A stretch of DNA of 64,000 nucleotides, from the NCBI GenBank assembly GCA_963924555.1, contig OZ004585.1, forward strand, positions 8,820,556 to 8,884,555, in the 5' to 3' direction. Positions within the stretch are counted from its first letter, which is position 1. Every line of letters starts with the position of its first letter. This document shows positions 14,291 to 49,984 of this stretch, piece by piece. The notes beneath the pieces were generated by a model. It made no database searches, had not been told where the DNA came from, and worked only from the letters and a program-made list of their open reading frames with translations. Origin of the DNA: Crambe crambe. Its lineage: Eukaryota; Porifera; Demospongiae; Poecilosclerida; Crambeidae. Made by a program: the position numbers and the translations under genes.

Positions 14291-14475
14291 GCTCTAGTAC
14301 TTTGTTCTTATCCAACTAAGGTTTGATTAGAAAAGGTCAAAGGTGGACCACATTATTATCACTATAATAGGATCTAGAGACCAAGTATCTAGCCATCAAC
14401 TTTTTATTATTTAACTTTGTGTGCATACATTATAAAATGTGAAAATTGTGGTGAGGAAATAGCTGTAGCCAGGTT

Positions 14476-16385
14476 TCATACTGGGGTGGCAATGTCGGTA
14501 CGGGAAGTGTCCTCTTCACTGTCCTCCTCTCCCACCACGATCATCTTGTTGCCCACCACTGCCACCATGCACTCACTCCGAGCGACTTCCATCTCACTAA
14601 ACTCAGACCAAGAATCAGACCCTACATCATATCTGTAGATGGTTTTGATCCTAGGAGGAGGAGTTGTTTTAGGGAATATATAGCCTGTCCTCCCTCCCAC
14701 ACCTAGGATGTGGCCGTGGAAGCTTGTGGGTGTCTGGTAAAAACATGGCATATCATTGAGGGATTTCCATGTTATATTACTACAATCCTTCATCTTACTC
14801 ACTGGGCAGGAGTCAAACACTTTGTTGTTACCCACTAAATCTATCCCTGCAGCTTGGTACATGATGTCGTTATGAATGAACCGGAACATGAGCCGATAGT
14901 AGTAACCATATAAGAGATCTATTTCGAAACTAGTCCACTCTAGAGTCCATAAGTCCAGTACATGTCCTTTACACATCAGCCCTTCGAACACTATCACCTT
15001 GTCCCTAGTACTGATGCAGGAGGAGTAGAGTAATCTTATTTTGGGTGCTGGTGGGAACTTCTCCACCCATGATTTATTCCTTCTCGTGTAAGTGTAGAGT
15101 GTTCCTTTGACACTTATATAAGTCAGGAACAGGTTGTGGATGACGTGGTAGTGTGTCCCAGGTTGTGGTGGGCGTGGTAGTGTGTCCCAGCATTCTGTTT
15201 CAGTGTCAAACTGGTAGATATCTCCTTTAGCATTTAGTGTATAAAAGTATGCCTTGCTGCCAACCACAGCTGTGTAGCCTCGACCAGAGAACTTCACCGG
15301 AGCATTTCTAGTCCTCCTCCAACGCAAGCTGAAGTCATTGGATATTAGTTTAGTCGTTTGAGCTTTGAGGATGCGATCCTTCTCTTGAATGACATATTTC
15401 TTGTCTTCTAACAGGTGTCGGAGTATTACTAATTTGCCCCACATCTCTTCGATGCAAACTTCTTGGAGCTCTAATTTCTTCTGATATTTGGCTCTTGCGG
15501 CTGTCTCTGCACTGTTCCTGTATGCATCTAGTGTCTGTATCTCCTCCAACTGAGCACAGAGTGCAGTGGCTGTTGGTCTGTCTTCATGCTTATCCTCCAG
15601 ACAGGCCAAAGAGACTTGGAGTAGAGGGGAGCCATCTTGGACCAGACTGATGTGGTTCTGTCTCCTCTCCACCTCCTTCACAGCCACTTGTGCTTCGATG
15701 GTGCGTCTCTTATTGTTGGGATCCGGCACTTGCAGGGTAGTGAACCTGTCCGAGGGTTCTGGGAATTTCCCCGTCAGCATCTGGAGCACTACCACACCAA
15801 GGGAGAAGATGTCCAGTTTATCTGTGTGGAGAGGTCTGTCCTTGAGGGCCTCTGGAGGCATGTAGAACATGGTGCCTGGACACGTGGTTGCTGGAGTCAT
15901 TCTAGGAGTCACCTTTTCCAACCTGGACATCCCAAAGTCAGTGACCTTTGCCCTCCTGTCTCCCAGCAACAAGATGTTGTTGCCAGAGAGGTCTCGATGG
16001 AGGATGTTGTTAGAGTGGAGGTAAGCTAGAGCAGAGGCTACGTCAAGGCAGAAGTCGAGCTGGGTGTGGAAGGGTGGGGTGTGTGGTGCCATCTCCTCCA
16101 GGAAGTGAGTGAGACTCTGGTCCATCAGCTCCATCAGTAGCACAGGCAGTCCAGTGTCTTCATCGGTGTGTGTACCCAGGTATTGAACGATGTTAGGGTG
16201 CTTGATAGCAGCAAGGAGTTAGCACTCCTGCTCAACCTGCTCATCATCTTCCTCACCCCAGGGTCAGCCGGGTCAAAGAGGAGAGAGTGGATGATTTTAG
16301 CAGCACAGGTGAGAGTGTCACACTTTGCCTTGCAGACTGAGCCATAAGAGCCTCTTCCCAGAACTTGGTCCTTCAGCAGAGTCAC
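14476..16385 (-). pseudogene. Broken kinase-Kelch paralogue
   Basis: Tandem copy of the gene at 12044-14290, same orientation. The N-lobe (LLKDQVLGRGSYGSV, CAAKII) reads from 16385 but is cut by a one-base loss around 16232-16236 (two A where the intact copy has three). In the original frame the codon matching CAA of QECQ is also TAA (16219-16221). The rest, MLLMELMD onward from 16143, stays open for 555 codons to the end of the Kelch region, with HRDLSGNN and DFG kept. The start region is rearranged too: the nearest upstream ATG at about 16419 runs into a stop. I call it a recent pseudogene; a sequencing error could explain the frameshift but not also the stop. Confidence 0.75.
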
Positions 16386-30999: not shown

Positions 31000-31950
31000 T
31001 CCTTCTTTTCCCAAGTTTTATTATTAACTTTTTTTTTTTTTTTCTTTTTCTTTTTGAGATTCATTTCCACATTTGAATTTATCATTCTTAGCTCCACTTA
31101 CTTTATGTCCATTCATTGCAGCCATCAATTATTCCTCACATCAGTACTAGCTTCTTTCTTTTACTTGCTATAGTACTTACTATACAACTGCATTGTACTT
31201 AAAAGTCTTGAACTTTAGAGTTGGGAGTGTTAACTCATGCAGAGCATTGAGGATTGTCATTGAGGGATATGAGAGACCGATCATGAATTGAATTCTACCT
31301 TGCCAGCTAATCAGAATGAAGGTTACTACAGTTTATTCTCATGACTTTTGCTTTCAAGATGCACTCGTGGGTTCATGGTCTGCAACAAACTTCCTTCGCT
31401 ACTTTCAAGCCAATCAGCATTAGTTTTATAATAGCTAAAGCAGATCACAGTCACATCTATATATAATCTATAAGATGCCCAGAATATATACAAGGGCTCC
31501 ATAGTTAGTAATAATGACAACCCTTTCCACATGCACACCGTACCAATACATAATTATATTATTATACAAAATAATAGCACAATACAGTAATTATGATATT
31601 GAGCAGTAAAAGAAAATGTCCGTGGCAGGTTGAGGAGAACCTTCAGGAGGAGAGATGGGGTTAAGGGCAAATAAAATGGTTATGTGAAAACATGGCAGCT
31701 ACCTTATTCTAGCCTCGTTCCCAGGCCTTCCTCTCTCACTTGTAATCAAACAGATAAAGTATTTTTCTTCTTTTAAAACTCTTCCTCCTGTGCAGTCTTT
31801 ACCTTTTTCTTCAGTGAGAAAGGAAGGCCTGGGAACGAGGCTAAACCTTATTCCACTTGTAGATTTGATTATGAAGGCTTACATAAAAGTGAGTCTGAAA
31901 TCATATTATCATGCTTTGCTATAACTACATTATCAGATTGATTGAGGGAC
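31000..31950. other. Intergenic between convergent genes, with hairpin element
   Basis: An inverted repeat at 31711-31846 has arms TAGCCTCGTTCCCAGGCCTT and its complement AAGGCCTGGGAACGAGGCTA: a ~136-bp MITE-like hairpin. A possible short last exon for the minus-strand Death-domain locus (acceptor CAG at about 31382, reading a few codons to a stop) is too weak to annotate. Confidence 0.6.
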
Positions 31951-31954
31951 TAAC

Positions 31955-32333
31955 CTGTTTGATGTGGAGGGGGAGGAGAACTAGTGACCATATGCAGTTT
32001 TTCTAAGTGAGAGAGGGACATTGATGAGTTCCACTTCTTGACGTCAATCCACACACTTACCTCTCCTAATGGTGATGGCTATCTTTGTGTGACCAGTCTT
32101 GTTGAGTGCTGTAGCCAGACTTTCCCAGCTGGGAGGACCACTTGTTTTGATGACATCGTAATCGCCCCTTAACCATGCTTCAACCATATCGTAAGGAAGG
32201 CTCGTCATTCTCTTCAACTTGTTGAAATCCAATCCGAGAGCTGTCCCCAATTTCATCACCTCATCATTGTTCAAGTCTTCCAGTAATGAAGACACCTGAA
32301 AATAGTCAGCTGTTCCCAGAGAACTTTGAGTGG
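31955..32333 (-). CDS. Death domain module 3 (two exons)
   Basis: Exon 32333-32061 (273 bp) encodes a Death domain: SSLLEDLNNDEVMKLGTALG, LKRMTSLPYDMVEAWLRGDY and SWESLATALNKTGHTKIAI. Exon 32002-31955 encodes the linker KLHMVTSSPPPPHQT. Both match, exon for exon and phase for phase, the copy at 37996-37724 and 37664-37617. Small Ser/Thr linker exons similar to those before module 1 lie upstream (near 34060-34110 and 34140-34180). No Ig exons follow before the next gene, so this copy is either terminal, truncated or alternatively spliced. Death domains mediate homotypic assembly in immune and apoptotic signalling. Confidence 0.7.
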
Positions 32334-34337
32334 CTGAATCACAAGTGTATGTGAAAATATATTATTACGTTAGCTATTTCTTTTACTCTTGATTCCTCAC
32401 TTGCAAGTTGAGGTCCACTTGTGTGTCTTTCTTCTAGTCCTTCAGAGCTTGTAGGATGGATACTTGTAGTTTGCATCTTACTTCGAGTAGCTAAAGTGTA
32501 CACAGTACATGTATGTGAGGATAGAGGGAGGGGAGAGAATGAGACATTGTTTGGGGAGAGTTGGTCTTATGATATAAGGGGTGATGGACACTCGCTGGTT
32601 GCGGTTCACTTGCCTTTGAAATCTGAACCATACTCTATTTGTCTATTATGGTCCACATGCTCATCAAGTACTCACTTGACTGAGGCTGTGATTCATGCCC
32701 TGCAGCATCATCTGTTAGTGGCTACAGTAAAAAAGAAGTGTCTGAAATACTCCTTACGGATTTAGACTAATCAGTGCTATTTGAACTCCATATGCTGCTG
32801 CTTAAAAACACACCTTTGCTGGTGGGCTTTTCCTTGTAGCTTCGGAAGTAACATCTATTAGACATAGAGTATAGGGTATTATACAAGTTACCAAGTTACT
32901 ATAAGTCAGTACAAGTTACTATGCACTATTCTACCAGTGAGGCCACATGCACCATGGATTTCAAGGTCAACTAGCTAAGTTCAACAATTGGAAGGATAGA
33001 GTTAGTCAGTCCTCCTATGCACAGAGTAACCAGCATGCCCTCTCCCTAGCCTTGGTGAGAAAGGAGCCCGAGGGTTGGAGGACAGAATATAGTGCCTGAT
33101 GCCTGAGGACAAAGGCAATATCCTGTACAGCACGAGGGTGAGGCATGGTTAACTGTTTTAATGCCTACAATGAAAATGTATTGGCTTCCTGGCTTCCTGA
33201 CATTGCCCTAACCACATATGGCCTGCAGTATGGGGGTGCTTTTTAACCCAGTACTAACTCGTTTTGCAAATCCATAAACTTGTCCCAAACTTCTGTCATG
33301 TGTTCTATAAAGATTGTATTATCTCTGCATCAAATTTCAGAGCTAAAGTGGCCAAAATGTACATCTAATAATTTGAGAACTCATAACATACACAGTGATC
33401 ACAGCCCAATTCACTAAGGCTTATATAATGAGTGGGTGGTGACAGATCTGTGCATAGATGCATATTAGAAAGGTGGTACATGTGTTCATAACCATAAAGT
33501 TCTTGATTACCTCGTACATCTAAGGAACCACTGCTCCTTCTTTTTTTTTACATGCAGCTTCATAAGTTAAGGTGATCAATGTAATAGTCAGTTTTTTCTA
33601 TATCTAGCTTAGACTTTTCAAATCACAAGGTCGGGCATGAAAAAATAAGAATAAACAAAAAAATTTAGTGTTATGTTATAGAATATAGATAGAAGGTGTC
33701 AGAGAAAAAAATTATCCAAGTAAGCCTAACAGTTCCTGAGAATTACAGGCATTAGCAAAGTTATTCATAGCACCCACGAAAATTTAAAATTTTTGGTGTG
33801 TATGGTAGTGACATGGTACTGTATAGCTAGGATATTTTGCTCATTGCTGCTCTAAACAGCTCTGGAGTTATACTCCCTTAGCAACCATGCCCTAGCACAT
33901 ACACGTCTGCATGAGCACAGTATAATCTTAACAAATACTATAGACACAATGATAATGCTGTTGCGCACTAATGCACCAATGACAGGTGGCCTTATGGATT
34001 TCATGTGAGGGACACACACATACTCACTTGTTGATTGAGGTCCACTTGTATGTCTTTCTCTCAGCCCTTCAGAGATGGTAGACTGTAATAAAGGATGGAT
34101 AACTTGTAATCCACATTTAAAATTGACCATTACAAACACAAACCTTTGAGTGTGTTGGTTCTTGCAGTTCGTTCGTTGGTACTGGAGGAGTGGAAATAAA
34201 ATTAGTATGAGATAGTCCCAGGATACCTCAATTCATCTGTCATGTGTCATAGGGCCCAAAGATATATAATGTATAGGTGGTCTGTGCATAGACCATTATT
34301 GGAAAAGTGGTATGCTAATTATTGCAATAATTAATTA

Positions 34338-35185: not shown

Positions 35186-35884
35186 CAGCTGTTGTCATGG
35201 TAGAAGGATTCACTACTAACTCCAAAGTTGCCTGGCCTACTCCAACATCATTCTCACAGCTGATTGAATACATTCCACTATCTGCCTCAGTCACTCTGCA
35301 AAAGATGATGGTGCCATATTCAACCTTGAATCGCTTTGTGACTGCCCTGCTTCCTTCCTTGGTCAGAGCATGTCGAACATCCTCATCCAATGGAGGGCAA
35401 CAGTTTACAGAGAATTGGACAGTGGGTGTGGTCCCAGCTGCAGCCTCAATGTATTCCAACTCAAGAGCATATTCTGGCGAGTCTGCATGGAGGGAGGAAG
35501 ACAGTGAATACACAGATATGAGGGGGGGGGGGGGGAACCAACTTTTATTTGTTGAGCAATAAAGTGAAAACCAATAAACAAAAGTATAACAACAAAAATT
35601 GCTATGACGTAACTCACATTGGACTTGGAGGTTGAATGAAGCATGACCTTTGCCAATGGCATTGGAGGAGCTGATGACATACTTCCCTGCATCTCTTCTT
35701 TTCACTTTTCTGAAGCATATATTGTTCCCTTGGATGAAGATATTGTCTTGACGAAGAGACTGGCCGTCTTCCCTGGATAAGGAGTGTTGCCTGAGGGGAG
35801 GCTCACATGATACCATCCACTGGACGTCCTGGTCACAGCCTTCCTTCACCCTCACTTCACCAGGTAAGGAGTAAACTGGAGGAC
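35186..35884 (-). CDS. Ig domains 3 and 4
   Basis: Exons 35884-35618 (267 bp) and 35482-35186 (297 bp), both entered and left in phase 1. First Ig: GPPVYSLPGEVRVKEG, NICFRKVKRRDAGKYVIS; second: PTVQFSVNCCPPLDEDV, ADSGMYSISCENDVGVGQAT, the DxGxY and NxxGxG features of I-set Ig domains. They are close paralogues of the pair at 36836-37468 and keep the 'ISSSNA' segment which that pair lacks. The Death exon that should precede them survives only as a fragment (35977-36069). Confidence 0.75.
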
Positions 35885-35976: not shown

Positions 35977-36069
35977 GCTATCTTTGTGTGACCAGTTTTG
36001 TCGAGTGCTGTAGCCAGACTTACCCAGCTGGGAGGACCACTTATTTGGATGATGTTATCATTGCCCCTC
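35977..36069 (-). pseudogene. Truncated Death-domain exon
   Basis: About 93 bp align with the second half of the Death exon (reads NDNIIQISGPPSWVSLATAL then DKTGHTKIA on the minus strand). The first half, the exon end and its donor are gone, and the left edge is fused to intron sequence (ATCTTAGAGGAGGTATTA) that lies before the Ig exon in the intact copy. This is a deletion junction between tandem copies. Confidence 0.75.
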
Positions 36070-36835: not shown

Positions 36836-39800
36836 CAGCTTTAGGGCTGTCGGTTGTCATTGTGGTAGAAGGATTCACCACTAACTCCAAGGTTGCCTGT
36901 CCCTTTCCAACATCATTCTCACAGCTGATGTGGTAAGTTCCACTGTCGTCCACAATCACTCTACAAAAGGTGATGGTGTCATCTTCAACTTTGAATCGTT
37001 TGGTGGCTGCACTGCCTCCTTCCTTGGTTAGAGTGTGTCGAGTATCTTCATCCAATGGAGGGTAGCAGTCCACAGAGAATTGGACAGTGGGTGTGGTCCC
37101 AGCTGCAGTCTCAATGTAGTCTGACTCAGGAGTATATTCTGGCAAGCCTGCATGGAGGGAGGAAGATAGTGAATGAACAGATATTACACTATTGCTATCA
37201 TGTAACTCACATTGGACTAGGAGGTTGAATGAAGCATGACCTTTGCCAATGGCATACTTCCCTGCATCTCTCCTTTTCACTTTTCTGAAGCAAATATTAC
37301 TCCCTTGGATGAAGATATTGTCTTGACGAAAAGGTTGACCATCTTCCCTGGATAAGGAGTGTTGGGAATGGTCTCTGAGGGGAGGCTCACATGATACCAT
37401 CCACTGGACATCCTGGTCACAGCCTTCCTTTACTCTCACTTCACCAAGTAAGGAGTAGACTGGAGGACCTACAATCAAATACATCACTGTATATAACTAA
37501 CATAGATGCATAACTTTGCCAATCTTAGAGGAGGTATTAATAGCTCCATTCAAAGTGAAACATGGCAGGTCTATTCCACACAATGGTACATTGATCAGAC
37601 TGATTGAGGGACTAACCTGTTTGATGTGGAGAGGAAGGAGAACTTGTGACCATGTGCAGTTTTTCTAAGTGAGAGAGAGACATTGATGAGTTCCACTTCT
37701 CAAACATCAATCCACACACTTACCTCTCCTGATGGTGATGGCTATCTTTGTGTGACCAGTTTTGTCGAGTGCTGTAGCCAGACTTTCCCAGCTGGGAGGA
37801 CCATTTGTTTTGATGACGTTGTCATCGCCCCTTAACCATGCTCCAACCATGTCATCAGGAAGACTCGTCATTCTCCTCAATTTGTTGAAAGCCAATCCGA
37901 GAGCTGTCCCCAATTTTATCACCTCATCATTGTTCAAGTCTTCTAGTAATGAAGACACCTGAAAATGGTCAACTGTTCCCAGAGAACTTTGAGTGGCTGA
38001 AGTGTACATAGTGTATGTGAGGATAGAGGGAGGGGAGAAATGAATGTTATTATTATTTTTTGTGGACAAATGGCCCTGGTTTCATGTGAAGGATACATAC
38101 TCACTTGCTGGTTGAGATCCACTTGTGTGTCTCTCTCCCAGTCCTGTAGAGCTGGTAGACTGTCTTGTAGTCTGCAAATAGTTACTCATATCTGGAGGAT
38201 TTTGAGTGGCTAAAGTGTACATAATAGAGGATAGAGGGAGGGGAGAGAGTGATATTGTGACAGGTGGCCCAATGAGAGATCACATAATACTCACTTGCAG
38301 GCTGAGGTTCACTTGTGTGTCTTTCTCCTTTAGAGCTGGTAGACTGCAATAAAGGATGCATGGATACTCGTTAAAGATCAACCTATTACTAACACGAACC
38401 TTTGAGTGTGTTGGTTCTTGCAGTGGGTTTATTGATGCTACTCTTTCTGAGGAGGAATGGAAAATAATTATATGACAGTCCTAGGGAGAAACTAATACTA
38501 TCCCATTCATATCTCATAATTATTTGTCCCAAACTTCAGACAGGGCCCAATTCACTAATCATTTTGGTGGTTTGTGCACAGATGCATATTATATTGGAAA
38601 GATGCTACTGATGCATACTTGCTGCAGGAATTGTAAAAGTGCACTCTTTTTTCAGTCCCTCCACAAACAGTGTCAGGGACTCAAATCTGGTGGTGCAAGT
38701 GATGCTGATTCCTGGAGGATAGTCAAGAGTCTTTGAAGGATCTTCAAAATTAGCCACTGGAAGGTCAATCTCAGCCCTTGAAATCTGAACCACATAAACC
38801 ATGTTGAATATAGCTACATTTCATAGTTATCTTATACTTACGGCTGGTTTATCCATGATTATGTTTTCAATGGGTTTAAGAGCTACTGTATCACTTGCTA
38901 TTGCCACTGCATCACGGACAATGCGGCCTTCACGTTGCTCTATCATTCCAGAGTATTCATTAGAGATGTTTTTATCACAAACCTTATATAATGCCCATAA
39001 TGAAGACAATGGATCTAAAGAGAGTAACATGTATCCATAGCTACCTGTGTGTACAATGGATGATGAGGACACATGCAGAACACAGCAATAATGTCGGAAT
39101 CAGATGTAACACTCAACGCTCGATAAAGTCTTGCAGAATACAAACTTTCAACTACATCATTTGAAGAAAGATTATAACCTATATAGCCATAATTATAGCT
39201 AGCTATACTGTAATGAAATACCTTTCGATATCGTTTCTTTCCTAAAGAATATCCTCCACCAACCCAAATGAGTGAATTGAATTTTACCAAACTGACTTCC
39301 TTCATTGAATGTTACACTAATATCCTTTACCTCCTTGAAGACATAGACTAGACAGGATCCCCTGTACTCTGGATCAGGACTAGCTCTTAAGAACATCATA
39401 TTCTTGCACTCCTCTTTAGTCTGGAGTTTAGCAGAGTGTTGCATCTTCATCTTCAGGGGCTTGTTCAATTCTGTCTGTTTGCTTGTTTTAATGAGATAGG
39501 CTGGACTAGCTGGCTCCATATCTTCAGGTATTTCGAAGGATCCACTAAAGCTTGGCTGAATCAACAGGTCCACTGATTCATCAGGTGAGATAGAGCCTTC
39601 AGGAATGTCAATACTTATTCCAGCATCACTTTCATGGTCAATCTTCTTTTCTGTACTTGAGATCTTCTCAAGAATTCTTTGATTTTTGATGAAGACTGCT
39701 CCAGGAGTGCTTTCATCTTTGCACAGAACTAAACATGCAAATTGTTACATCAAAGTTATAGTATTTACATAATAGAAAAGTGCATAGCAAGAATGAACTG

Positions 39801-42800
39801 CATGTTCTATTATGGTCCACATGCTTATCAAGTACTCACTTGACTGAGGCTGTGATTCATGCCCTGCAATATCATCTGTTAGTGGCTACAGTATAAAAAG
39901 AAGAGTGTCTGAAATACTCCTTACAGATTTAGACTAATCAGTGCTATTTGACCTCCATGCTCTGCTGCTTAAAAACACACCTTTGCTGGTGCTGGGCGAG
40001 AGAAAATTCTTTTCCTTGTAGCTTCGGAAGTAACATCTGTTAGACATAGAGTATTCTAACTTGTAGGGTACAGTACAAGTGACAAGAGCACTATTCTACC
40101 ATTGAGGCCACATGCACCATGGATTTCAAGGCCAACTAGCTAAGTTCAACAATTGGAAGTAGAGGGATAGAGTTGGTCAGTCCTCCTATGCATAGAGTAA
40201 CCAGCATGCAAGGAAGGAGGGTCAGGAGAGGAAGGTTCAGGGGGGACAGCTGAAAATGATCACACATGCCTATGAGGGCTATATACAGGATTTAGATCCC
40301 GTTGCTATGTGGTTGCTATGTGCATTAAATCAGCAAGTGTGCACTAAGTAATATTTAGTTCACTCTTTTCTAGCTCTAAGTGTTTTAATGCACCTGCACG
40401 AGAATGATGCTATAATGCTCGAGGTGAATGTAATGCACGAGCCGAAGGCGAGTGCATTACATCACCGAGAGCATTATAGCATCATTCGAGTGCACCATGC
40501 ATTAAAACACATGGAGCTAGAAAAGAGTGATCTAAACATTTTAGTGCTGGTCACATGACTTGTGACCAATCAAATTCCAGTTGGTCCTTACAGAACCCTA
40601 GCCCTAGCCTAGCCCTAGCTAGCCCTGGTACCTAGCAAGCTCTGACACACTTTGGTTCAGTAAGAATGCTCTAATTTAATGATATTCAAAAAAATAAATG
40701 AGGTAAATTCCTGAGGTTTTCCTGTTTGAAACCCAATGTAAAAAGTGAAATGCTAAAGTCTATAAAAGAAAACATTAAGACATATACTTACTGTAAGCAC
40801 TAGGGACTGAGGCTGGAAGGTCATAGTCCTAGTGGATCTTCCACTAGGCTCCTATGTACCTTCAGCACAGTTTCTCAAGTGTGCACTAAATATTTAGTGC
40901 ACATGAAAGTGTGCTTTATGAGATTTAAAGCACACTTTTCAGAGAATCTGATTGGTCACAAGTCATGTGACCAGCACTAATTCTGTAGGAGTGCACTAAG
41001 TAATATTTAGTTCACTCTTTTCTAGCTCTAAGTGTTTTAATGCACCTGCACGAGAATGATGCTATAATGCTCGAGGTGAATGTAATGCACGAGCCGAAGG
41101 CGAGTGCATTACATCACCGAGAACATTATAGCATCATTCGAGTGCACCATGCATTAAAACACATGGAGCTAGAAAAGAGTGATCTAAACATTTTAGTGCT
41201 GGTCACATGACTTGTGACCAATCAAATTCCAGTTGGTCCTTACAGAACCCTAGCCCTAGCCTAGCCCTAGCTAGACCTGGTACCTAGCAAGCTCTGACAC
41301 ACTTTGGTTCAGTAAGAATGCTCTAATTTAATGATATTCAAAAAAATAAATGAGGTAAATTCCTGAGGTTTTCCTGTTTGAAACCCAATGTAAAAAGTGA
41401 AATGCTAAAGTCTATAAAAGAAAACATTAAGACATGTACTTACTGTAAGCACTAGGGACTGAGGCTGGAAGGTCATAGTCCTAGTGGATCTTCCACTAGG
41501 CTCCTATGTACCTTCAGCACAGTTTCTCAAGTGTGCACTAAATATTTAGTGCACATGAAAGTGTGCTTTATGAGATTTAAAGCACACTTTTCAGAGAATC
41601 TGATTGGTCACAAGTCATGTGACCAGCACTAATTTTGTAGGAGTGCACTAATTTTTTTGCATCCCCAGGCTATGCTGAATGCTGCAAGACAGCTTGAAAA
41701 AGTTGTTGAAATTCTGCCTTTTATGCTGGCTACTATACTCTCTGAAAAGCTTGTTGGGTTTGAAACGTTATGTCATTATAAACGTGCAACGTGGTCAATG
41801 AATAACATTAAAATTCCACGTTTCAAACCCAACAAGCTTTTCTGAGAGTAGCTAGTATAAAAGAAGGAACATTCTAGCTGGTCTACAGCAAGCTGGTGTT
41901 TCACACGCCGCCTATCCTTCGTGCTCGGGGGAGTATCCCTGATTTATAGATACAGAGGTTTTCAGGTTGGTTGACCAGTAGAATTTGCGCATGTGCAAAA
42001 TAAATTCATGCGAGTAAAATATACTGTCATACAAATGCAATGGTCTTAAATTTAGCGAGCACGAATTTAATTCTGCATTGTTGGCAAATTTTGTGTCAAC
42101 CAACCTGAAAACCTCTGTAGCTATAACAGGAGCATCAGCAGGTACGTGGACTATTCTTGCCGCCATTTCACAACTCAAGAAAGAAGTGGAGACACAACAA
42201 TTAGCTAGCTATAGCAAACCAAACAGTACTGATGTTTGTAACTATGGACTACAGTAGCTACGCGCATGCGCAATGGGATCTAAAATAGATAAAGCATGCG
42301 CACTCGGTTTCTGGTTGATTTAGTGCACCATCCCTCGGGCCTGCAGCCCTCGGGCTACGGTGCACTAAATCAACCAGAAACCTCGCGCACATGCTTTATC
42401 TATTACATAGTGCCTGATGCCCGAGGGCGGAGCCTGAGGGTGAAGGCTATATCCTGTACAGCATGCATGAGGGTGAGGCATGGTTTAACTGTTTTAAAGC
42501 CTACGATGAAAATGTAATATTGCCCTAACCACATAATAATATGCATGGTCTGCAGTAAGCAGTAGCAGGGTACTTTTAACCACAAGTAGCTAGGCTCATT
42601 CTGAAGTATACCAACTCATTTTGCAAATCCATAAACTTCCCATCATGCGTTCTATAAAGGTTGGATTATCTCTGCATCAAATTTCAGAGCTAAAGTGGCC
42701 AAAATGTACATCTAATAATTTGAGAACTCATAACATACACAATTCACTAAGGGTTATATAATGAGTGGGTGGTGACAGGTCTGTGCATAATTGCATATTA

Positions 42801-45800
42801 GTAAGGTGGTACATGTGTTCATATAATATAAATACGTACTTAGTTCCTGAAGTTTGTTCCTTATCCTCCATCCTACTCCTTTGAGTTTTACATGTCCTTT
42901 TGTCCTGAACTCATTAAGAGTGTTATCTTGGTCTCGATGTTTCCCCTTCCTAACTTTCTCTAGGAAATATTTAACCCTCACTGAGAGAGTTAAAGGCTGC
43001 AGCTGTAGAAGCATGAAGGTTAAAGCACCGTTACTTATCATGAATCACAACTCACCTGAATTGGGTTCTGTGGTATTACAGGTAAAGAAGCAGATTTGAA
43101 GAAGGGTAGCTCAAGAATCTATTTCATAGGACCGAAAATATCATCACAACAATCAACTGTTTCGTATAATTTACGTCACTGATGCTATGGCTAAATCCAT
43201 CAGCAAATACATACTGCAGTGCTTCCTTTAGCTCTGGTATTCTAATGGACTCATACTGTTCCTTTGATGGAGTAAAAGTAGTGAGTTCTCTCATATAAAT
43301 CATCTCATACAACACATGACCTGAAACAATAATCAACGTTATGTGAGCTAGGTAGCTATATTTCTACATACCAAACATGATGACATCTATAAACTCTTCT
43401 CCAGAACTTGAGTATAGATCATAGCGATGTGTCCTGTATCCTAGCAATGTGTTCTCATATCCCCCTAGTCGACACACGTCCCCCTCCACAAAGATGTTCC
43501 CAGTGTGCACATGTCCAAGAGGGGGAAACCCCAGTCCATACAAGTACTTCATTGCCTGGTGAGGAAAATGTGAATGAAGTGAGGGAGTTTAGTTGCATTA
43601 TGTCATTTACCATTAGAATCTGGTGGCCAAAACTTGCAATTTGTAGTGGAGTTAGTGGATTTCGTCTTCCTCTTTTGATTGCAGTCATCTTACTCTCCCA
43701 ACCATCCATAGGTTTAGTCTGGTAGATAAACTGTCATTAAACTTGTGCTAACTACAGGATTAGTTCCATCCTACCCCATACATGACATCCCTGAGGGAGC
43801 CCTCTTCCTGAAGAGGGTAGAGCATGGAGACCAGGTGATGTCCATTCACCTTACTGTACTCACACTCCACCAGTGGAAGGAGGAAGGGACACTGCAGCAC
43901 AAGCAATACACATGCTATGAGTACATTACATTACTATACTATAGCTACATGCTGCAAGTGAGCACACCTGATAGCTGCACACACCTGGGAAAGATCCTGA
44001 GTGAGTTCTGATAGAGCTCGAAAGGAAGTACTGAGATATATGGGACATGTCTGGGGTATCTTGGTCTATAAGAATGGTAAGGTGTCATTAAAACATAAGT
44101 GTCATTATGAAATCACACAATAGTTTGCAGGTGAGTTGATCCTTCATCTTCTTTGATCATCCAGATTCTCTCACTCCTTTGTCCTATCATATAACAATCA
44201 TAAGAGATGTGGTCTAGTTAATAATAACAGTAGAATAACAGCAGCTAGCCAATTAATATCAAAGTCATCACTAAAGTGCAAGCCTTACCTGTCTCAAATG
44301 TGGATGGTATTATTTGGGTACCAAGAAACATCTCCATAGCAGCTGCTATGTTATCAGGTATTTTCCAGCTTTCAGTTGTTGGAGTAGGAACCATTTTATC
44401 TTTCTTCACTTTCTTTGTCATTTTCTTTTCCCCCACTACTTTATCTCTAACTTGTTTAAGTAAATCTTTAGCTCCAGAAGATAAAGCCTATAATTATTAT
44501 AAAGTAAACCAGTTCTGCTATGAATGATTGAGCACTAACTTCAGATTCTGTTGGACTTGCATGTTGAATGGCAATGAATTGTGGAATATGCATAATCTAT
44601 ATAAAAACATGTAGCTTTAGTAATAGCTATAAAGAGTGTAGCTACATGCAGTGTATGTTTAAGTTACCTCTCTCATCAGAGCTATGTAATCCTTCTTGGT
44701 TTTGCCGATATCAAAGATTCTTCCGAGAACTTCTCTCACTTCATCATCCACTTTCTGATAGTCCTCATCAGTAGGGAATACATGCCCAGGTTCAAACCCA
44801 CATGCCATTTCAAATATCACATGACCTGAAAAAGTGCCACCAATATAAGTGGTACCTGGATAAATCCATATTGCACTCACTAAACATAATTCCATCAATC
44901 TGTCTCAAGCAGTCTTCTTGCTCAATGTCTCGGTAAAGGCGTGTCCTGTATCCTAGCAACACATTCTCATAGCCTCCTAGTTTAATGCCCTCTTCAGTGA
45001 TGAAGATGTTTCCAGTGTGCACATTACCCAGTGGAGGAAAGCCAAGCTCATAAAGGTACAAGAATGCCTAATAGAGTGCACATGATAATAGCTAATATTA
45101 ATATTGTTAGTATGTCACACTAACCTCCAATAGCTGACTTCCATATCTAAAGATCTCCAGCTTCTTAAGTGGCTTTTCGTTTCTTTGATCCATTCCGTAT
45201 TTCTTGTCCCAATCTCTGTCAGGATTGGCATTCTATTGTGTACATGCATGCAGTGTGAGTATGCCAGTCCACATTATATGCAGAAATATCAAGGGTACAA
45301 TAAAAGAAGAAATAAAACTGTAACCTTGACTATATACCTTGTTTAGTGTGTCTCTCAGTGATCCTTTCTTTCTATAAGGTTGGACGAGGACTATACGACT
45401 ATCAGTACAAGCGATTCCTACCTCCCGTATCGGATGAATGTGATGATGCTGGATACATAAACTTCATAAACTAAGAGCATAGAATATATCCAAGCTCACC
45501 TGGCTAACTTTCTTCAGAATCTCAAATATCTTCTCTAATTCAGAATGCAGTTCAATAGGACATTTCTTTGATACTGGAGACTGCAATAATAATTTAATTC
45601 AAGTTTAGTGGGAGGGGTTAAAATTATTATTACGAGTGCTGTAACACCACTCATTATCCTCTTTCATACACAGCGTACCAGTGTCACTAAAACACATTCC
45701 GTGGAGCTTTTCTTCCATCCTTTGCACCAATATTTCTGTAGTCGAGATCCTACATATATTGCTTAATCATCATGTTTAAGTAGCTATGCCCATATAGCTA

Positions 45801-47557
45801 GCTTACCTAGGTAAGCATCACACTGATACCCAGGATTGAATGGAGAGCAATCACTGGAATCCTCAAAGAATTCAAGATAAAGATCAGAAGCAAGCTCTAT
45901 TATAATAAATAATTTTAAATTATGGAGTAGTAACTATGATGCTACTTCTTACTTCGATCAACTCTTTCTTCTGATATTCTGCGTCTGGTGTAGTGGCTAG
46001 GGCTAGGGCTAGTTTCTTTTTCTTCTTCCTGTGAAGAGTGAGAGAGAGGTGAGACAACCACAAAGACAGCCATCATGCACCACAAAAAACATGTGACACG
46101 TGAGACTTGTGAGAGAGTAAGGTAACCTGGGGTAATTTCGGATGCGGGGTAATCCCGGACACTGGCTCCTTACTCCGAAGAGAAGAAGCTAACAGGCTTT
46201 AACCTGGAACTTAGAAACAACTACATATGCTTTACCTCTCCACCAACTCTTGAAGGCCGATGCTGGATCTACATAGCTCTAAACCGCTGATCTCCTGCAA
46301 ACCAACCTTTTCTTGTACCGCGACTTTTCCAGCACAAGCAGAGCTAGGTTAGCTATACATAGCTAGTTAGCACTAAGACTAAAGTTTCACTCTAGGGTAG
46401 CAACCCTGCACTGTTCTATGATCTGGGTGAGCAGTGTGCCGAGTGTCTGGAATTACCCCACCCACAAAATTTGACACCACTCGATGTTTTTTAATATTGC
46501 AACAAAACTACATAAGTTTGGTGTTCCAGAGTTGTAGCAGCTTTTGGAAAAAGTATCCGGAATTACCCATTTTACCTATTATGACCACTAGCTAGTGTTT
46601 GAGTTGCAAACTCCAGGAGTCTACATTGCATGCTCATCCAAAATAATATTGGGGGGGGGGGGGGGGGGTACTGATTGGGTCAGTTATGATTCGCTGCACA
46701 TGCATTTGTTTGCTACCACTGTAGCTCAACTCTTCCTGAAAGAAGAGATTCTGCAGTTATTCAAGGGCTGCATAAGTGGCCATTCACCCCCTACTCCATT
46801 CTTTATTCACTGTTTTTAAGGTGCTGGCAGTGAGCGTCTTGTTGGAGATACTGGACCAGCACAACATAGTATTTAATTTTACAACTCACCCCAAAGAACC
46901 ACTTCTGGACCTGTATGTGAGGAAATAACAGAGTCATAACAGTCATGCATGGACTAAGCTTAGTATAGTAGTCGTCTACCCATGGTCTAGCCTAAAGCTT
47001 CAATGACCATACTGTCACAATCATACCCTCCAAGTTTGTAAAATGTCATGAAAGAGTACCTTTTGAACTGTGCGTACACTGTAATAAAACTCACTCAGAA
47101 TGCACACACCATGTATCAATTTTGGTGCCAAGTCAAGATGCCAGCACTTGACAATCAGCTGGCAAGGGCTAGGGAGGAGCGAGATTATAGTAGCATTGCA
47201 GCCTATTAATTATTTAGCCTATTATGCTGCTATTCCATTATTATGCTAGCATATTAGCCCCATGCCTAGCTACAAGTTTGGTGGTGTTTCAGTGCCTTCA
47301 GGCTCAGCCATAAAGAAGCAGTGATACGATGAAGGATAAGGATACAGATTAGCCTGGAATTGCATTACTATGAAATTTCCAAGCAGTACATCCAATCATT
47401 GTGGCATGTAGAAGGCCCCCAGGCATAGACTGGACTAGCATGCAGCCTGTACTTGTGCATACTGCAGCTATTCAAGCGAAAAACACACCTTTGCTGGTAC
47501 TGTCATTTCTTCCCGAATCCTCTGAGTCTCTCTGTTGCTACTGGTAGCCTGCCCCAT
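36836..47557 (-). CDS. Double PXK-like pseudokinase-ZU5-Death-Ig protein
   Basis: Phase-consistent minus exons: 47557-47489, 46910-46890 (tentative), 46028-45953, 45896-45807, 45749-45679, 45580-45500, 45448-45338, 45232-45125, 45067-44881, 44825-44668, 44596-44540, 44487-44289, 44183-44119, 44065-43985, 43891-43775, 43718-43611, 43555-43372, 43320-43175, 43118-43056, 43002-42840, 39875-39840 (optional), 39728-39222, 39044-38842, 38784-38619, small linker exons (38100-38460), 37996-37724, 37664-37617, 37468-37211, 37147-36836. The start MGQATSSN fits N-myristoylation. Two domains match PXK/Slob kinases (KKLEIFRYGSQLLE, GFPPLGHVHTGNIF, RLGGYENTLLGYRT); the HRD and DFG aspartates are absent, so both are pseudokinases. 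Then ZU5 (SIDIPEGSISPDES, DMEPASPAYLI), a probable UPA segment, a Death domain (VSSLLEDLNNDEVIKLGTAL) and two Ig domains. One continuous gene is inferred from phase; it could be two. Confidence 0.68.
38100..38460 (-). other. Repeated small Ser/Thr linker exons
   Basis: Three short exon-like blocks with splice signals read KRVASINPLQEPTHSK (near 38401-38450), STSSKGERHTSEPQPA (near 38296-38345) and RQSTSSTGLGERHTSGSQPA (near 38103-38170). They are copies of one another, and similar blocks recur at 34030-34180 before Death module 3. Their exact ends and phases are unsure; alternative use is likely. Confidence 0.5.
40339..41642. repeat. 652-bp tandem direct duplication with palindromic core
   Basis: Two copies, 40339-40990 and 40991-41642, differ at only a few bases (e.g. 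GAGAGCATT/GAGAACATT, ACATATACTT/ACATGTACTT). Each holds a near-perfect inverted repeat with arms of about 75 bp (CTAGCTCTAAGTGTTTTAAT ... ATTAAAACACATGGAGCTAG) and a second smaller inverted repeat around GTGCACTAAATATTTAGTGCAC. It lies in the 3.1-kb intron before the ZU5 exon. No coding sequence was seen. Confidence 0.9.
41731..41857. mobile_element. Hairpin MITE
   Basis: Arms CTCTGAAAAGCTTGTTGGGT-TTGAAACGT and ACGTTTCAAACCCAACAAGC-TTTTCTGAGAG face each other across a ~50-bp centre. No ORF. Confidence 0.75.
41951..42119. mobile_element. Mariner-like MITE, 169 bp
   Basis: Terminal inverted repeats TACAGAGGTTTTCAGGTTGG and CCAACCTGAAAACCTCTGTA are essentially perfect. The outermost TA at each end fits a TA target duplication as in Tc1/mariner elements. 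The 88-codon ORF on the minus strand is only the element's palindromic sequence. Confidence 0.8.
42286..42403. repeat. 118-bp palindrome
   Basis: Arms TAGATAAAGCATGCGCACTC, GGTTTCTGGTTGATTTAGTG and their complement to about 42403, around a CCCTCGGGCCTGCAGCCCTC centre. A near-perfect NRF1-like site (CGCGCATGCGCA) sits just left at 42261-42272. Confidence 0.85.
46050..47480. other. Intron and G run near the 5' end of the pseudokinase gene
   Basis: Apart from the tentative 21-bp exon 46910-46890 (VQKWFFG) nothing coding was seen. A G run lies at 46651-46668. The block 46800-46915 is duplicated at 48360-48545, where the microexon equivalent reads KLLRRVRNLS. Confidence 0.5.
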
Positions 47558-49984
47558 CCTGGATAATGGGAGTCTTAGTAAAAGTTACACAAACACCAAC
47601 AGATAATGGCTTCACTTTTACAGTGTCCTCCACAGTTTGCACTTACTCAGATCAGTCCGAGCTTCTCTACACCACTGACACAAGCGACAGCTAGCTACAT
47701 GAGAAATTGCTACACTTCAATCCGCCACTATACTAGTTCAGTACTACTTATATGTGCTGTCATAGTGCATGTAGGTGCATGAACCTACAGAAAACTTGCC
47801 AGTTAGTCTGAATGCAGCCTCCTCCGGTTCCCTCTCTTTTCAGTTAAAAATATGAAAAATGAGATTCTGCTATACCTGGAAAATGAAATGATATGGATGA
47901 AGAGGACGCCTGGAGAATGAAAGATCCGTCCTCCACTGAAGGAAGATCTGCTCCCTACCCACCCTCCACTGAAGGAACTTCTGCGCGAGACTTCGCTAGC
48001 TAGCTAGTCTGTAGCCTCGTACCCAGGCCTTATCAGAGAGTGTGCAAGCACTCTCTAAGTAGGGATGGCAGGTCAAAGGTCATAGTCAGAGAGTGAGCTA
48101 GCACTCTCTAGCCTCACCACACACATAGCATGTGAGCTACAGCCTTCAAATTAGAGTAAATCATGCTATGATGTCACTATGCCTTGCCCATTGCAGCTGC
48201 AAACTCCAAAGGTGGAGAATCTTCATTTATATTAAGGGGTGCATGATAGACCCCTTGGCAGACATGTCAAGGAATTATGCATGATGTGCCCAGGGCACAT
48301 ATGCTGCTTTAAGTACAGTATTCCAACAAACAACCCATTCCTGCATACAAGCACCCCCCACTCTTTATACACTGTTGCTATGTAATGGCCTACTGTTGCT
48401 ATGGGCCTAAGGTGCTGGCAGTGACTGTCTAGAGGGTCTTGTTGGAGATACTGGACAAACACAACAACATAGGAGCTATTTTCATAACAACTCACCCTCG
48501 ATAGGTTCCGTACACGTCTCAGGAGTTTCTGTATGTGAGGAAACAAACCGACTCAAAACAGCCATATTTGAGGACTAGTAAGCTAGTAGCTAGCTAGTTG
48601 TGCATGCTATAGAGAGAGACCTAGGACTAAAGTAACACCAACAAACAAGTCCTTCAATGATTGGGGCGAGTGCACTCTCTACATAGGTGCCAACTGTCCC
48701 CAAACTTCGGGGACAGTCCCCAAATTGGCAGCTTTGTCCCCAAGTCCCCAAAGGGGTACTGATTTGTCCCCAAAGGCCAAGGTCCTGACTGAGCACATTG
48801 TGGTTTCATGGATTAACATGTACAGTAGCTACTGTATACATCACTCAGTACATTATCTGTATTGTACAGATAATGCACTGAGTGATGTTTACAGTACTGA
48901 TGTACTAGCTACCTCAAAAGTTAAGTAGCTATTTTGTAATGATAATCCTTTGCATAGGGTAGGTGTGGGTATTATGAGTCAGTCCCTATTATGGGTTCAC
49001 CACTTGATAAGAATCTACAAGAGTTGATACTTTAGATATGAACTTTTGATCAAATAAAATCATCCAGAAAATGCCTTATTCATGCATAAACATAATCTTA
49101 AATAAGAAGTTTAAAAATGGGTATAATCGTGGCCAATCTGAATCAAAAAAGCGCAGGGAAGCAATGATGCTACAAGATGGAGTAAAAAATGAATTTTAAA
49201 GTAATCTAAGGTTATTATTTTTGTTTTGTACAAATCTTAGCTACATTATCAATTCTTAGAGACAAAAATCAACCCAGTGACTCATAATTCATACCTATGA
49301 CTCATAATACCTTCCTGAGTGTCATGTAAGATCATAACTCCTATCTACAAGATGCAATATTTTTATTACTTTCTCCACACATTAGTTCTACATAACCTAT
49401 TTTATATCTGGAGCAATTTTCAGCATTCTAAGATAGTCCATTTCCAAGAAAAGAGCAACAATACTTAGCTGACTCATAATACCCACACCCACCCTAAATG
49501 GGTGTGGTTAGTGGGTGTGGTTGGGATGTGGCCTGTGTGTCCCCAAAGCCAGTTTGACTCTCTCATATGTAAGCATATGAGTTATGTAGTTATATCTGAT
49601 GATCTTTATCCAGCCCTAGGGCTCCCGTAGATGATTTCTGTTTGTATTCTGGTGTATTATGAAATGCCTATTTCCCTATTGAGCATTCTGCGCATGTCTG
49701 GTTAATCTTGAGTGTATCTTTATGCATGTTTATGGCCATTAAATTAATGATTAACAGCCTAATAGCTAATTATTATGACTAACCTTTCTCTCGCTATCGC
49801 CATCATCATAGATATATGATGTCCAGACCACGGAACATTATCTATAACCATAGATAATAATTATAGATAGTATCTATGCTTTTTAACTATGCCATCATCG
49901 ATCGATCAAGGCACGTGCGCATCGATCAAGGCACGTGCGGCCGCGGGCGGCTGAGAGGGAAAGGATCGTCAGGCCTTTGAGACG
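47558..49984. other. Intergenic region with three inverted-repeat elements
   Basis: Upstream of the divergent pseudokinase and HSD17B10 genes. Contains the duplicated block 48360-48545, GTCCCCAA-rich sequence at 48690-48780, a hairpin at 48838-48888 (ACATCACTCAGTACATTATC and its complement) and a TIR element at 48955-49496. No further gene was seen. ATCGATCAAGGCACGTGCG is duplicated at 49899-49939, close to the HSD17B10 start. Confidence 0.55.
48955..49496. mobile_element. TIR element, ~542 bp
   Basis: Ends TAGGGTAGGTGTGGGTATTA and TAATACCCACACCCACCCTA are inverted copies that extend into ATGAGTCA/TGACTCAT. The interior is A/T-rich without a transposase ORF. The TA at each end could be a target duplication. 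Confidence 0.75.

What the first reader, a model, noticed from the sequence alone, without database searches (positions are those of the whole stretch)
36836..47557. Double PXK-like pseudokinase fused to ZU5-UPA-Death-Ig
Seen: splice phases link two kinase-like blocks with GFPPLG(N/H)VHTGNIF and LGGYEN in place of HRD and DFG, a ZU5 (IPEGSISPDES), a Death domain and two Ig domains. Known: PXK/Slob kinases have degenerate active sites, and ZU5-UPA-DD is a conserved supramodule in UNC5, PIDD and ankyrins. Inferred: an intracellular or membrane-anchored (MGQATSSN) signalling scaffold that joins a vesicle-type pseudokinase to death-fold signalling. I know of no such combination.
Basis: partly seen in the sequence, partly recalled or inferred. 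Interest (0 to 1): 0.85.

Follow-up and report, generated by a model that had tools for sequence, protein, structure and literature searches.

The report
Chimeric pseudokinase and death-domain gene
In what is probably a sponge genome, pieces of three duplicating gene families on one chromosome appear to have been joined into one gene whose protein would carry two inactive kinase domains, a ZU5 domain, a death-like domain and immunoglobulin domains; if it is transcribed as one message it would be a new way of wiring dead kinases to death-fold signalling.

Summary
The domains are there, on the minus strand. Two PXK/Slob-like pseudokinase blocks share one linking exon, and their exon order recurs in tandem paralogs. 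A ZU5 exon, a divergent Death-like exon and an Ig pair follow. In 10 of 10 readable C8 paralogs the kinase gene stops in its last exon; the window copy has lost that stop, and an in-phase splice donor leads on to ZU5-family exons. Membrane and ectodomain-like stretches seen upstream in two paralogs were not found here. The Death-Ig-Ig tail is 86% identical over 1174 nt to part of a ROC/COR-like Ig-Ig-Death gene on the same chromosome. No RNA could be tested, so two adjacent genes or a silent chimera remain possible. UPA was not confirmed; the Death fold rests on profile likeness. The ZU5 has lost the Phe-Ser pair, at the PIDD-type self-cleavage position, kept by 16 of 19 database relatives and 9 of 9 own-genome loci looked at. 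Best guess for function (inferred): a non-cleaving cytosolic scaffold or brake linking receptor pseudokinases to Death signalling.

The parts
47489..47557 (-). putative first coding exon, MGQATSSN... (N-myristoylation-like by eye)
   Evidence: not confirmed by a homologue
46890..46910 (-). exon 2; exon and flanks resemble the second coding exon of a ZU5-family gene (L045), mostly in the flanks
   Evidence: DNA 71% over 94 nt, 43.7 bits; best of 8 control segments 29.2; a peptide search did not see it
45953..46028 (-). exon 3 (revised frame EEEKET...RISEERVDR)
   Evidence: frame follows paralog L052, by eye
44289..45896 (-). pseudokinase 1: exons 45896-45807, 45749-45679, 45580-45500, 45448-45338, 45232-45125, 45067-44881, 44825-44668, 44596-44540 and start of 44487-44289
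42840..44487 (-). pseudokinase 2: rest of link exon 44487-44289, then 44183-44119, 44065-43985, 43891-43775, 43718-43611, 43555-43372, 43320-43175, 43118-43056, 43002-42840
42835..42842 (-). junction: paralog stop codon lost, phase-1 donor A|gtacgt
   Evidence: (10 of 10 paralogs stop), (donor ranks 26 of 33)
40037..42839 (-). 2.8 kb intron: 42823-42432 recurs at 33490-33101; two 98.5% copies of a ~650-680 nt repeat at 41651-40974 and 40999-40322
39840..40036 (-). ZU5-family linker exons 40036-39981 and 39885-39840
39222..39728 (-). ZU5 exon; Leu-Gly where relatives have Phe-Ser
38619..39151 (-). exons 39151-39045, 38982-38842, 38784-38619 where UPA would lie; conserved with ZU5 paralogs, no UPA model match
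38105..38446 (-). linker exons 38446-38400, 38343-38295, 38209-38105
37724..37996 (-). divergent Death-like domain exon
37617..37664 (-). linker exon
37211..37468 (-). first Ig exon (six residues shorter than copies)
36836..37147 (-). second Ig exon (I-set)
35977..36068 (-). 92-nt Death exon fragment, not in the model
35186..35884 (-). second Ig pair: exons 35884-35618 and 35482-35186, in phase
32401..34181 (-). repeated linker exons 34181-34144, 34082-34028, 32854-32814, 32721-32676, 32490-32401
32061..32333 (-). second Death-like exon
31591..32002 (-). linker 32002-31955 and possible terminal exon 31640-31591 ending in TAA

Best explanation
One chimeric gene on the minus strand. Recombination among three tandem families of the same chromosome placed a double PXK/Slob-like pseudokinase cassette in front of the ZU5 part of a ZU5-family gene, and the back end is a Death-like/Ig-Ig block of the ROC/COR-like Ig-Ig-Death kind. 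Shown: the exons, phases, homologies and the breakpoint behind the kinases. Weakly shown: that the front end also comes from a ZU5-family gene. Inferred: that one transcript spans all. Proposed mechanism (inferred): the cytosolic protein docks through its two inactive kinase domains, possibly onto receptor pseudokinases of the same array; its ZU5 module has lost the Phe-Ser self-cleavage pair and so stays in one uncut chain with the Death-like domain; the Death-like and Ig domains recruit partners. It would act as a constitutive scaffold or an IRAK3-like brake rather than as a cleavable PIDD-like switch.
For: The last kinase exon holds a stop in 10 of 10 C8 paralogs read (a fragmentary C1 copy was left out); the window copy loses homology some codons before it and meets a phase-1 GT donor, the phase that the next ZU5-family exon needs. 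Upstream stretches of 2 of 2 paralogs examined have no blastn likeness in window 45982-48200, and the longest start exons of ZU5 gene L045 (relatives in L046, weakly L048) were not found anywhere in the window, so each half seems to lack what the other could supply. A DNA likeness to L045 lies in front of the kinases. The tail matches L054 at 86% over 1174 nt. The 43 exons have AG/GT borders and one open frame. Computed dN/dS 0.16-0.72. In a simulation of neutral substitutions at half the dS that I took, no stop arose in 1%, 0.75% and 4.8% of 2000 runs for the three blocks. About 150 kb away, L049 holds a pseudokinase followed by a Pfam Death domain (E 9e-10), probably one gene.
Against: No transcript evidence. 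The junction intron is long and repeat-filled. Donor and acceptor are ordinary (ranks 26 of 33 and 18 of 32), and stronger sites lie inside the intron: 3 of 158 GT and at least 8 of 182 AG. No listed second copy shows this fusion. The first Ig lacks six residues. Exons 1-2 are weakly supported, and the L045 likeness rests on one locus and mostly on flanks. A search of the protein database with the first full model returned four proteins, matching the Ig tail only. The function is not tested at all.
Confidence: 0.55

Rival explanations
1. Two neighbouring genes: a double-pseudokinase gene that reads on without splicing and stops after a new 28-residue tail (...STYLYYMNTCTTLLICNYAQTCHHPLII), and a separate ZU5-Death-Ig gene with an unrecognised first exon in the 2.8 kb gap.
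For: Paralogs end at this exon and an in-frame stop lies 28 codons past the break; ZU5 gene L045 appears to start on its own short exons (by eye); the gap is long.
Against: The two longer L045 start exons were not found in the gap (the two shortest, 8 and 11 residues, are too short for that search to exclude). The first ZU5-family exon is internal in L045 (by eye) and needs a phase-1 donor, which the last kinase exon provides. The upstream stretches of two kinase paralogs are not found here.
Confidence: 0.27
2. A chimeric recombination product that is not expressed or is already decaying.
For: No listed second copy; six residues missing from the first Ig; a Death exon fragment and a partly repeated tail lie behind it.
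Against: No stop in the 1266 codons of the three blocks and no frame break seen in the exon alignments, although the neutral simulation predicts about 3-5 stops per block.
Confidence: 0.13
3. A misassembly that joined two loci inside repeats.
For: Two 98.5% identical repeats lie in the intron.
Against: The break lies between 42840 and 42823, outside those two repeats, and the downstream copy (33490-32642) shows the same order of intron stretch and linker exons without kinases.
Confidence: 0.05

Closest known systems
PXK / Slowpoke-binding protein (Slob) pseudokinases; database proteins P0006-P0008 (P0008 from Geodia barretti)
   Same: Same pseudokinase family; H/N-x-x-x-GN and GGYEN or SGYEN in place of HRD and DFG
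   Different: Those relatives have one pseudokinase and one membrane-like segment (by eye), and P0006 and P0008 a WH2 motif; here two pseudokinases, no membrane segment found, no PX, no WH2, and a ZU5-Death-Ig tail
ZU5-UPA-Death proteins (UNC5, PIDD, ankyrins) and FIIND proteins CARD8/NLRP1
   Same: ZU5 followed by a Death-like domain; relatives keep Phe-Ser at the end of ZU5 as in PIDD HF/S (passages of PMC3210808)
   Different: UPA not confirmed; window has Leu-Gly there (UNC5b has Leu at the Phe position per the same passages); pseudokinases in front, Ig behind
IRAK2/IRAK3
   Same: IRAK3 is a pseudokinase thought to be a negative regulator (abstract of PMC7955167) and has a Death domain (abstract start of PMC6820782 in the listing)
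   Different: Different kinase family and domain order (order recalled); no ZU5 or Ig
ROC/COR-like Ig-Ig-Death genes (P0001, L054)
   Same: Nearest relatives found of the Death-Ig-Ig tail
   Different: They carry a GTPase/COR-like front (P0001: COR-A 34.8 bits, cut-off 35.3) and no kinase or ZU5 was seen in them
Lineage-specific Death/TRADD-N architectures of Amphimedon and NACHT-ZU5 genes of early animals
   Same: Large sponge families with shuffled Death-fold and ZU5 domains (passages of PMC8195603 and PMC12909245)
   Different: The passages seen name no pseudokinase-ZU5-Death combination

Membership tests
PXK/Slob pseudokinase family | Sequence homology of the kinase-like domain | tested here: met
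   profile A1 finds P0006-P0008 at E 2e-64 to 1e-60
PXK/Slob pseudokinase family | Degenerate HRD and DFG | tested here: met
   Asp of HRD replaced by Asn (K1) or His (K2) in the weak alignment to OSR1; LGGYEN where DFG would be (placing of DFG by eye)
PXK/Slob pseudokinase family | PX domain (PXK proper; defining feature recalled) | tested here: not met
PXK/Slob pseudokinase family | C-terminal WH2 (as in P0006) | tested here: not met
ZU5-UPA-Death supramodule | ZU5 | tested here: met
   below cut-off alone; homologous to copies above cut-off; 18 of 20 members of the exon alignment, window included, match ZU5 at E <= 1
ZU5-UPA-Death supramodule | UPA | tested here: inconclusive
   no match, and the model rang in no genome of that search
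ZU5-UPA-Death supramodule | Death domain after ZU5 | tested here: inconclusive
   no Pfam Death match (0 of 9 family members); hhalign E 1.9e-8 to a Pfam-positive Death domain; fold model weak
Autoproteolytic ZU5 (PIDD, FIIND) | Phe-Ser at the end of ZU5 | tested here: not met
   Leu-Gly in the window; Phe-Ser in 16 of 19 database relatives (2 Phe-Cys, 1 Phe-Gly) and in 9 of 9 loci L040-L048
IRAK-type Death-kinase adaptor | N-terminal Death domain followed by the kinase domain (recalled) | tested here: not met
   the Death-like domain lies behind the kinases; resemblance in proposed function only
One gene | One transcript across 42840|40036 | not testable with these tools
   no RNA data held

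The most novel reading that the evidence does not exclude
The gene is an animal 'integrated decoy': an immune Death-fold scaffold that has captured the paired pseudokinase domains of a neighbouring family of receptor pseudokinases, so that interference with the receptors' inner domains is sensed by the bait and passed on through the Death-like domain. The array would then be a cassette-shuffling immune locus that makes new receptor-to-death wirings.
Probability: 0.08. Interest if true: 0.92.

Novelty: new variant of a known kind. Interest (0 to 1): 0.6.

Why it matters
It shows how tandem arrays can make a new signalling protein: three families on one chromosome, with many phase-1 exon borders, supply a pseudokinase pair, a ZU5 module and a Death-Ig tail. 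If transcribed, it links PXK/Slob-type pseudokinases to death-fold signalling, which my eight searches of the open-access library did not show as described (listings, with four papers opened in part). The receptor-like paralogs, and the pseudokinase with a Pfam Death domain about 150 kb away, make a testable case that such animals use dead kinases as receptor tails.
Full report
Setting. The window is bases 8820556-8884555 of contig C8 in a genome of 143139886 bases in 119 contigs. The gene has many small introns. The only database relative of the pseudokinase that carries a species name comes from the demosponge Geodia barretti. I therefore treat the genome as probably that of a sponge; the species was not identified.

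What is there. I built a splice model on the minus strand and corrected it after comparison with paralog L052. The revised model has 43 exons from 47557 to 31591, AG/GT borders, one open frame and a final stop, 1824 aa. The part after 36836 is a partial repeat of the tail and could be skipped or alternative.

The pseudokinases. A search of the own genome with the second block gave 127 exon-size matches, most in a tandem array on C8 at 8.0 and 8.7-9.07 Mb, with a smaller group on C1 and one on C20 (102 of 102 candidates scored). Mapping my exons onto fetched pieces shows the same exon order in copy after copy. The link from block 1 to block 2 lies within one exon (44487-44289), which one search lists 12 times, this copy included. 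A profile of five family members finds proteins named 'PX domain-containing protein kinase-like protein' and 'Slowpoke-binding protein' at E 2e-64 to 1e-60. In a weak alignment to ordinary kinases of the PDB (best E 0.0015) the Asp of HRD is replaced, and LGGYEN stands where DFG would be (placing by eye). The long relatives P0005-P0008 have one membrane-like segment, by eye, and P0006 has a WH2 motif. Upstream of two double-pseudokinase paralogs lie Ser/Thr-rich stretches, a Cys-bearing stretch and a membrane-like segment (by eye; not shown to be in the same transcript). Of four single-pseudokinase pieces read, one shows an Ig-like stretch and a membrane-like segment and another a membrane-like segment (by eye). 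So the array looks like receptor pseudokinases.

The break. In 10 of 10 C8 paralogs whose last exon I could read, that exon holds an in-frame stop 36-67 codons in (in one copy the stop, at 36, lies inside the conserved part, so that copy may be broken; a fragmentary C1 copy was not used). In the window the homology ends some codons before the usual stop and a GT donor in phase 1 follows. The sequence behind it (42823-42432) recurs at 33490-33101 within the repeated tail and weakly in an intron of ZU5-family genes. The next family exon, at 40036, begins in phase 1; in L045 it is an internal exon, by eye.

The ZU5 family. The own genome gave 136 matches (129 of 373 candidates scored). L045, a close copy, seems to start on four short exons and has no kinase in the piece read (by eye; its ZU5 exon carries a frame change). 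These start exons were not found in the window by peptide search, a test that is fair only for the two longer ones. By DNA, the second one has a likeness around 46928-46847, in front of the kinases (71% over 94 nt, 43.7 bits, against at most 29.2 in 8 control segments), mostly in the flanks; a further 22-nt match lies at 48497. So both ends of a ZU5-family gene may flank the kinase cassette; the front end is the weaker part of the case.

The tail. DNA 38039-36886 is 86% identical over 1174 nt to L054, where a stretch like the back of P0001-P0004 (ROC/COR-like) is followed by Ig-Ig, the same Death-like domain, Ig-Ig and a Pfam-type Death domain (domain reading of L054 by likeness). The Death-like exon has 150 matches, itself included (150 of 336 candidates scored). 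None of nine scanned matches Pfam Death, but hhalign links the family to the Death domain of L049.

Coding state. Computed dN/dS between the window and paralogs is 0.16-0.72 in the kinase blocks, 0.25-0.54 in ZU5 and the exons after it, 0.37 and 0.51 in the Death-like exon and 0.28 in the Ig pair; several kinase comparisons are saturated, rest on few codons or compare block 1 with block 2 type copies, and are unreliable. Stops occur in the aligned parts of 3 of the 26 pieces compared (C1, C8:8946369 and L044), not in the window. A simple simulation of neutral substitutions, at half of dS values (0.12, 0.33, 0.20) that I took, gives 3-5 stops per block, and no stop in only 1%, 0.75% and 4.8% of 2000 runs. 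This says that each block was coding for most of its history; it does not prove that the fused transcript exists now.

How it may work. PIDD, CARD8 and NLRP1 cut themselves between Phe and Ser at the end of a ZU5 domain; the Ser is the nucleophile, and UNC5b has Leu in place of that Phe (passages of PMC3210808). Relatives of the window ZU5 have Phe-Ser in 16 of 19 database proteins (two Phe-Cys, one Phe-Gly; some may come from the same or a sister genome) and in 9 of 9 own-genome loci L040-L048; the window has Leu-Gly. The window protein should therefore not cut itself (inference). With two inactive kinases in front and no membrane exon found, a cytosolic scaffold or brake is the most economical reading, comparable in effect to IRAK3, a pseudokinase thought to restrain signalling (abstract of PMC7955167; Death domain of IRAK3 from the listing). 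All of this is inference.

Known or new. The domains are known; the combination was not seen in eight paper searches, which cover open-access papers only and were mostly read as listings. Sponge expansions of Death-fold proteins with shuffled partners are known (PMC8195603, PMC12909245; passages only). I call it a new variant of a known kind.

Noticed in passing
L049 (C8:8703400-8711400, minus strand): A membrane-like segment, one pseudokinase of this family, Arg/Ser-rich repeats and a Pfam Death domain (E 9e-10) with a stop, probably one gene: a second pseudokinase-Death link about 150 kb from the window gene.
   Followed up: partly
L054-L056, L064 and others on C8 (7.7-8.7 Mb): A repeated family of ROC/COR-like genes with Ig-Ig and one or two Death-type domains; database relative P0001 also has a weak TRAF-type zinc finger at its start (21.4 bits, cut-off 27).
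   Followed up: partly
window 12044-16218, minus strand: Two tandem long open frames with a protein kinase domain that keeps HRD and DFG, followed by Kelch-like repeats (both by eye).
   Followed up: no
L050 (C20:6107500-6114000): A divergent member with a long Lys-Glu-Asp-rich repeat, a membrane-like segment and one pseudokinase.
   Followed up: partly
C8:9052071-9055283 (L033): A copy with a C-terminal stretch resembling the WH2 end of P0006; possibly the ancestral-type Slob gene next to the array.
   Followed up: no
window 40322-41651: Two 98.5% identical copies of a ~650-680 nt repeat with inverted-repeat parts, inside the junction intron.
   Followed up: partly
P0015, P0020, P0023: Relatives with long acidic insertions between the catalytic-loop motif and GGYEN or CGYEN.
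   Followed up: no
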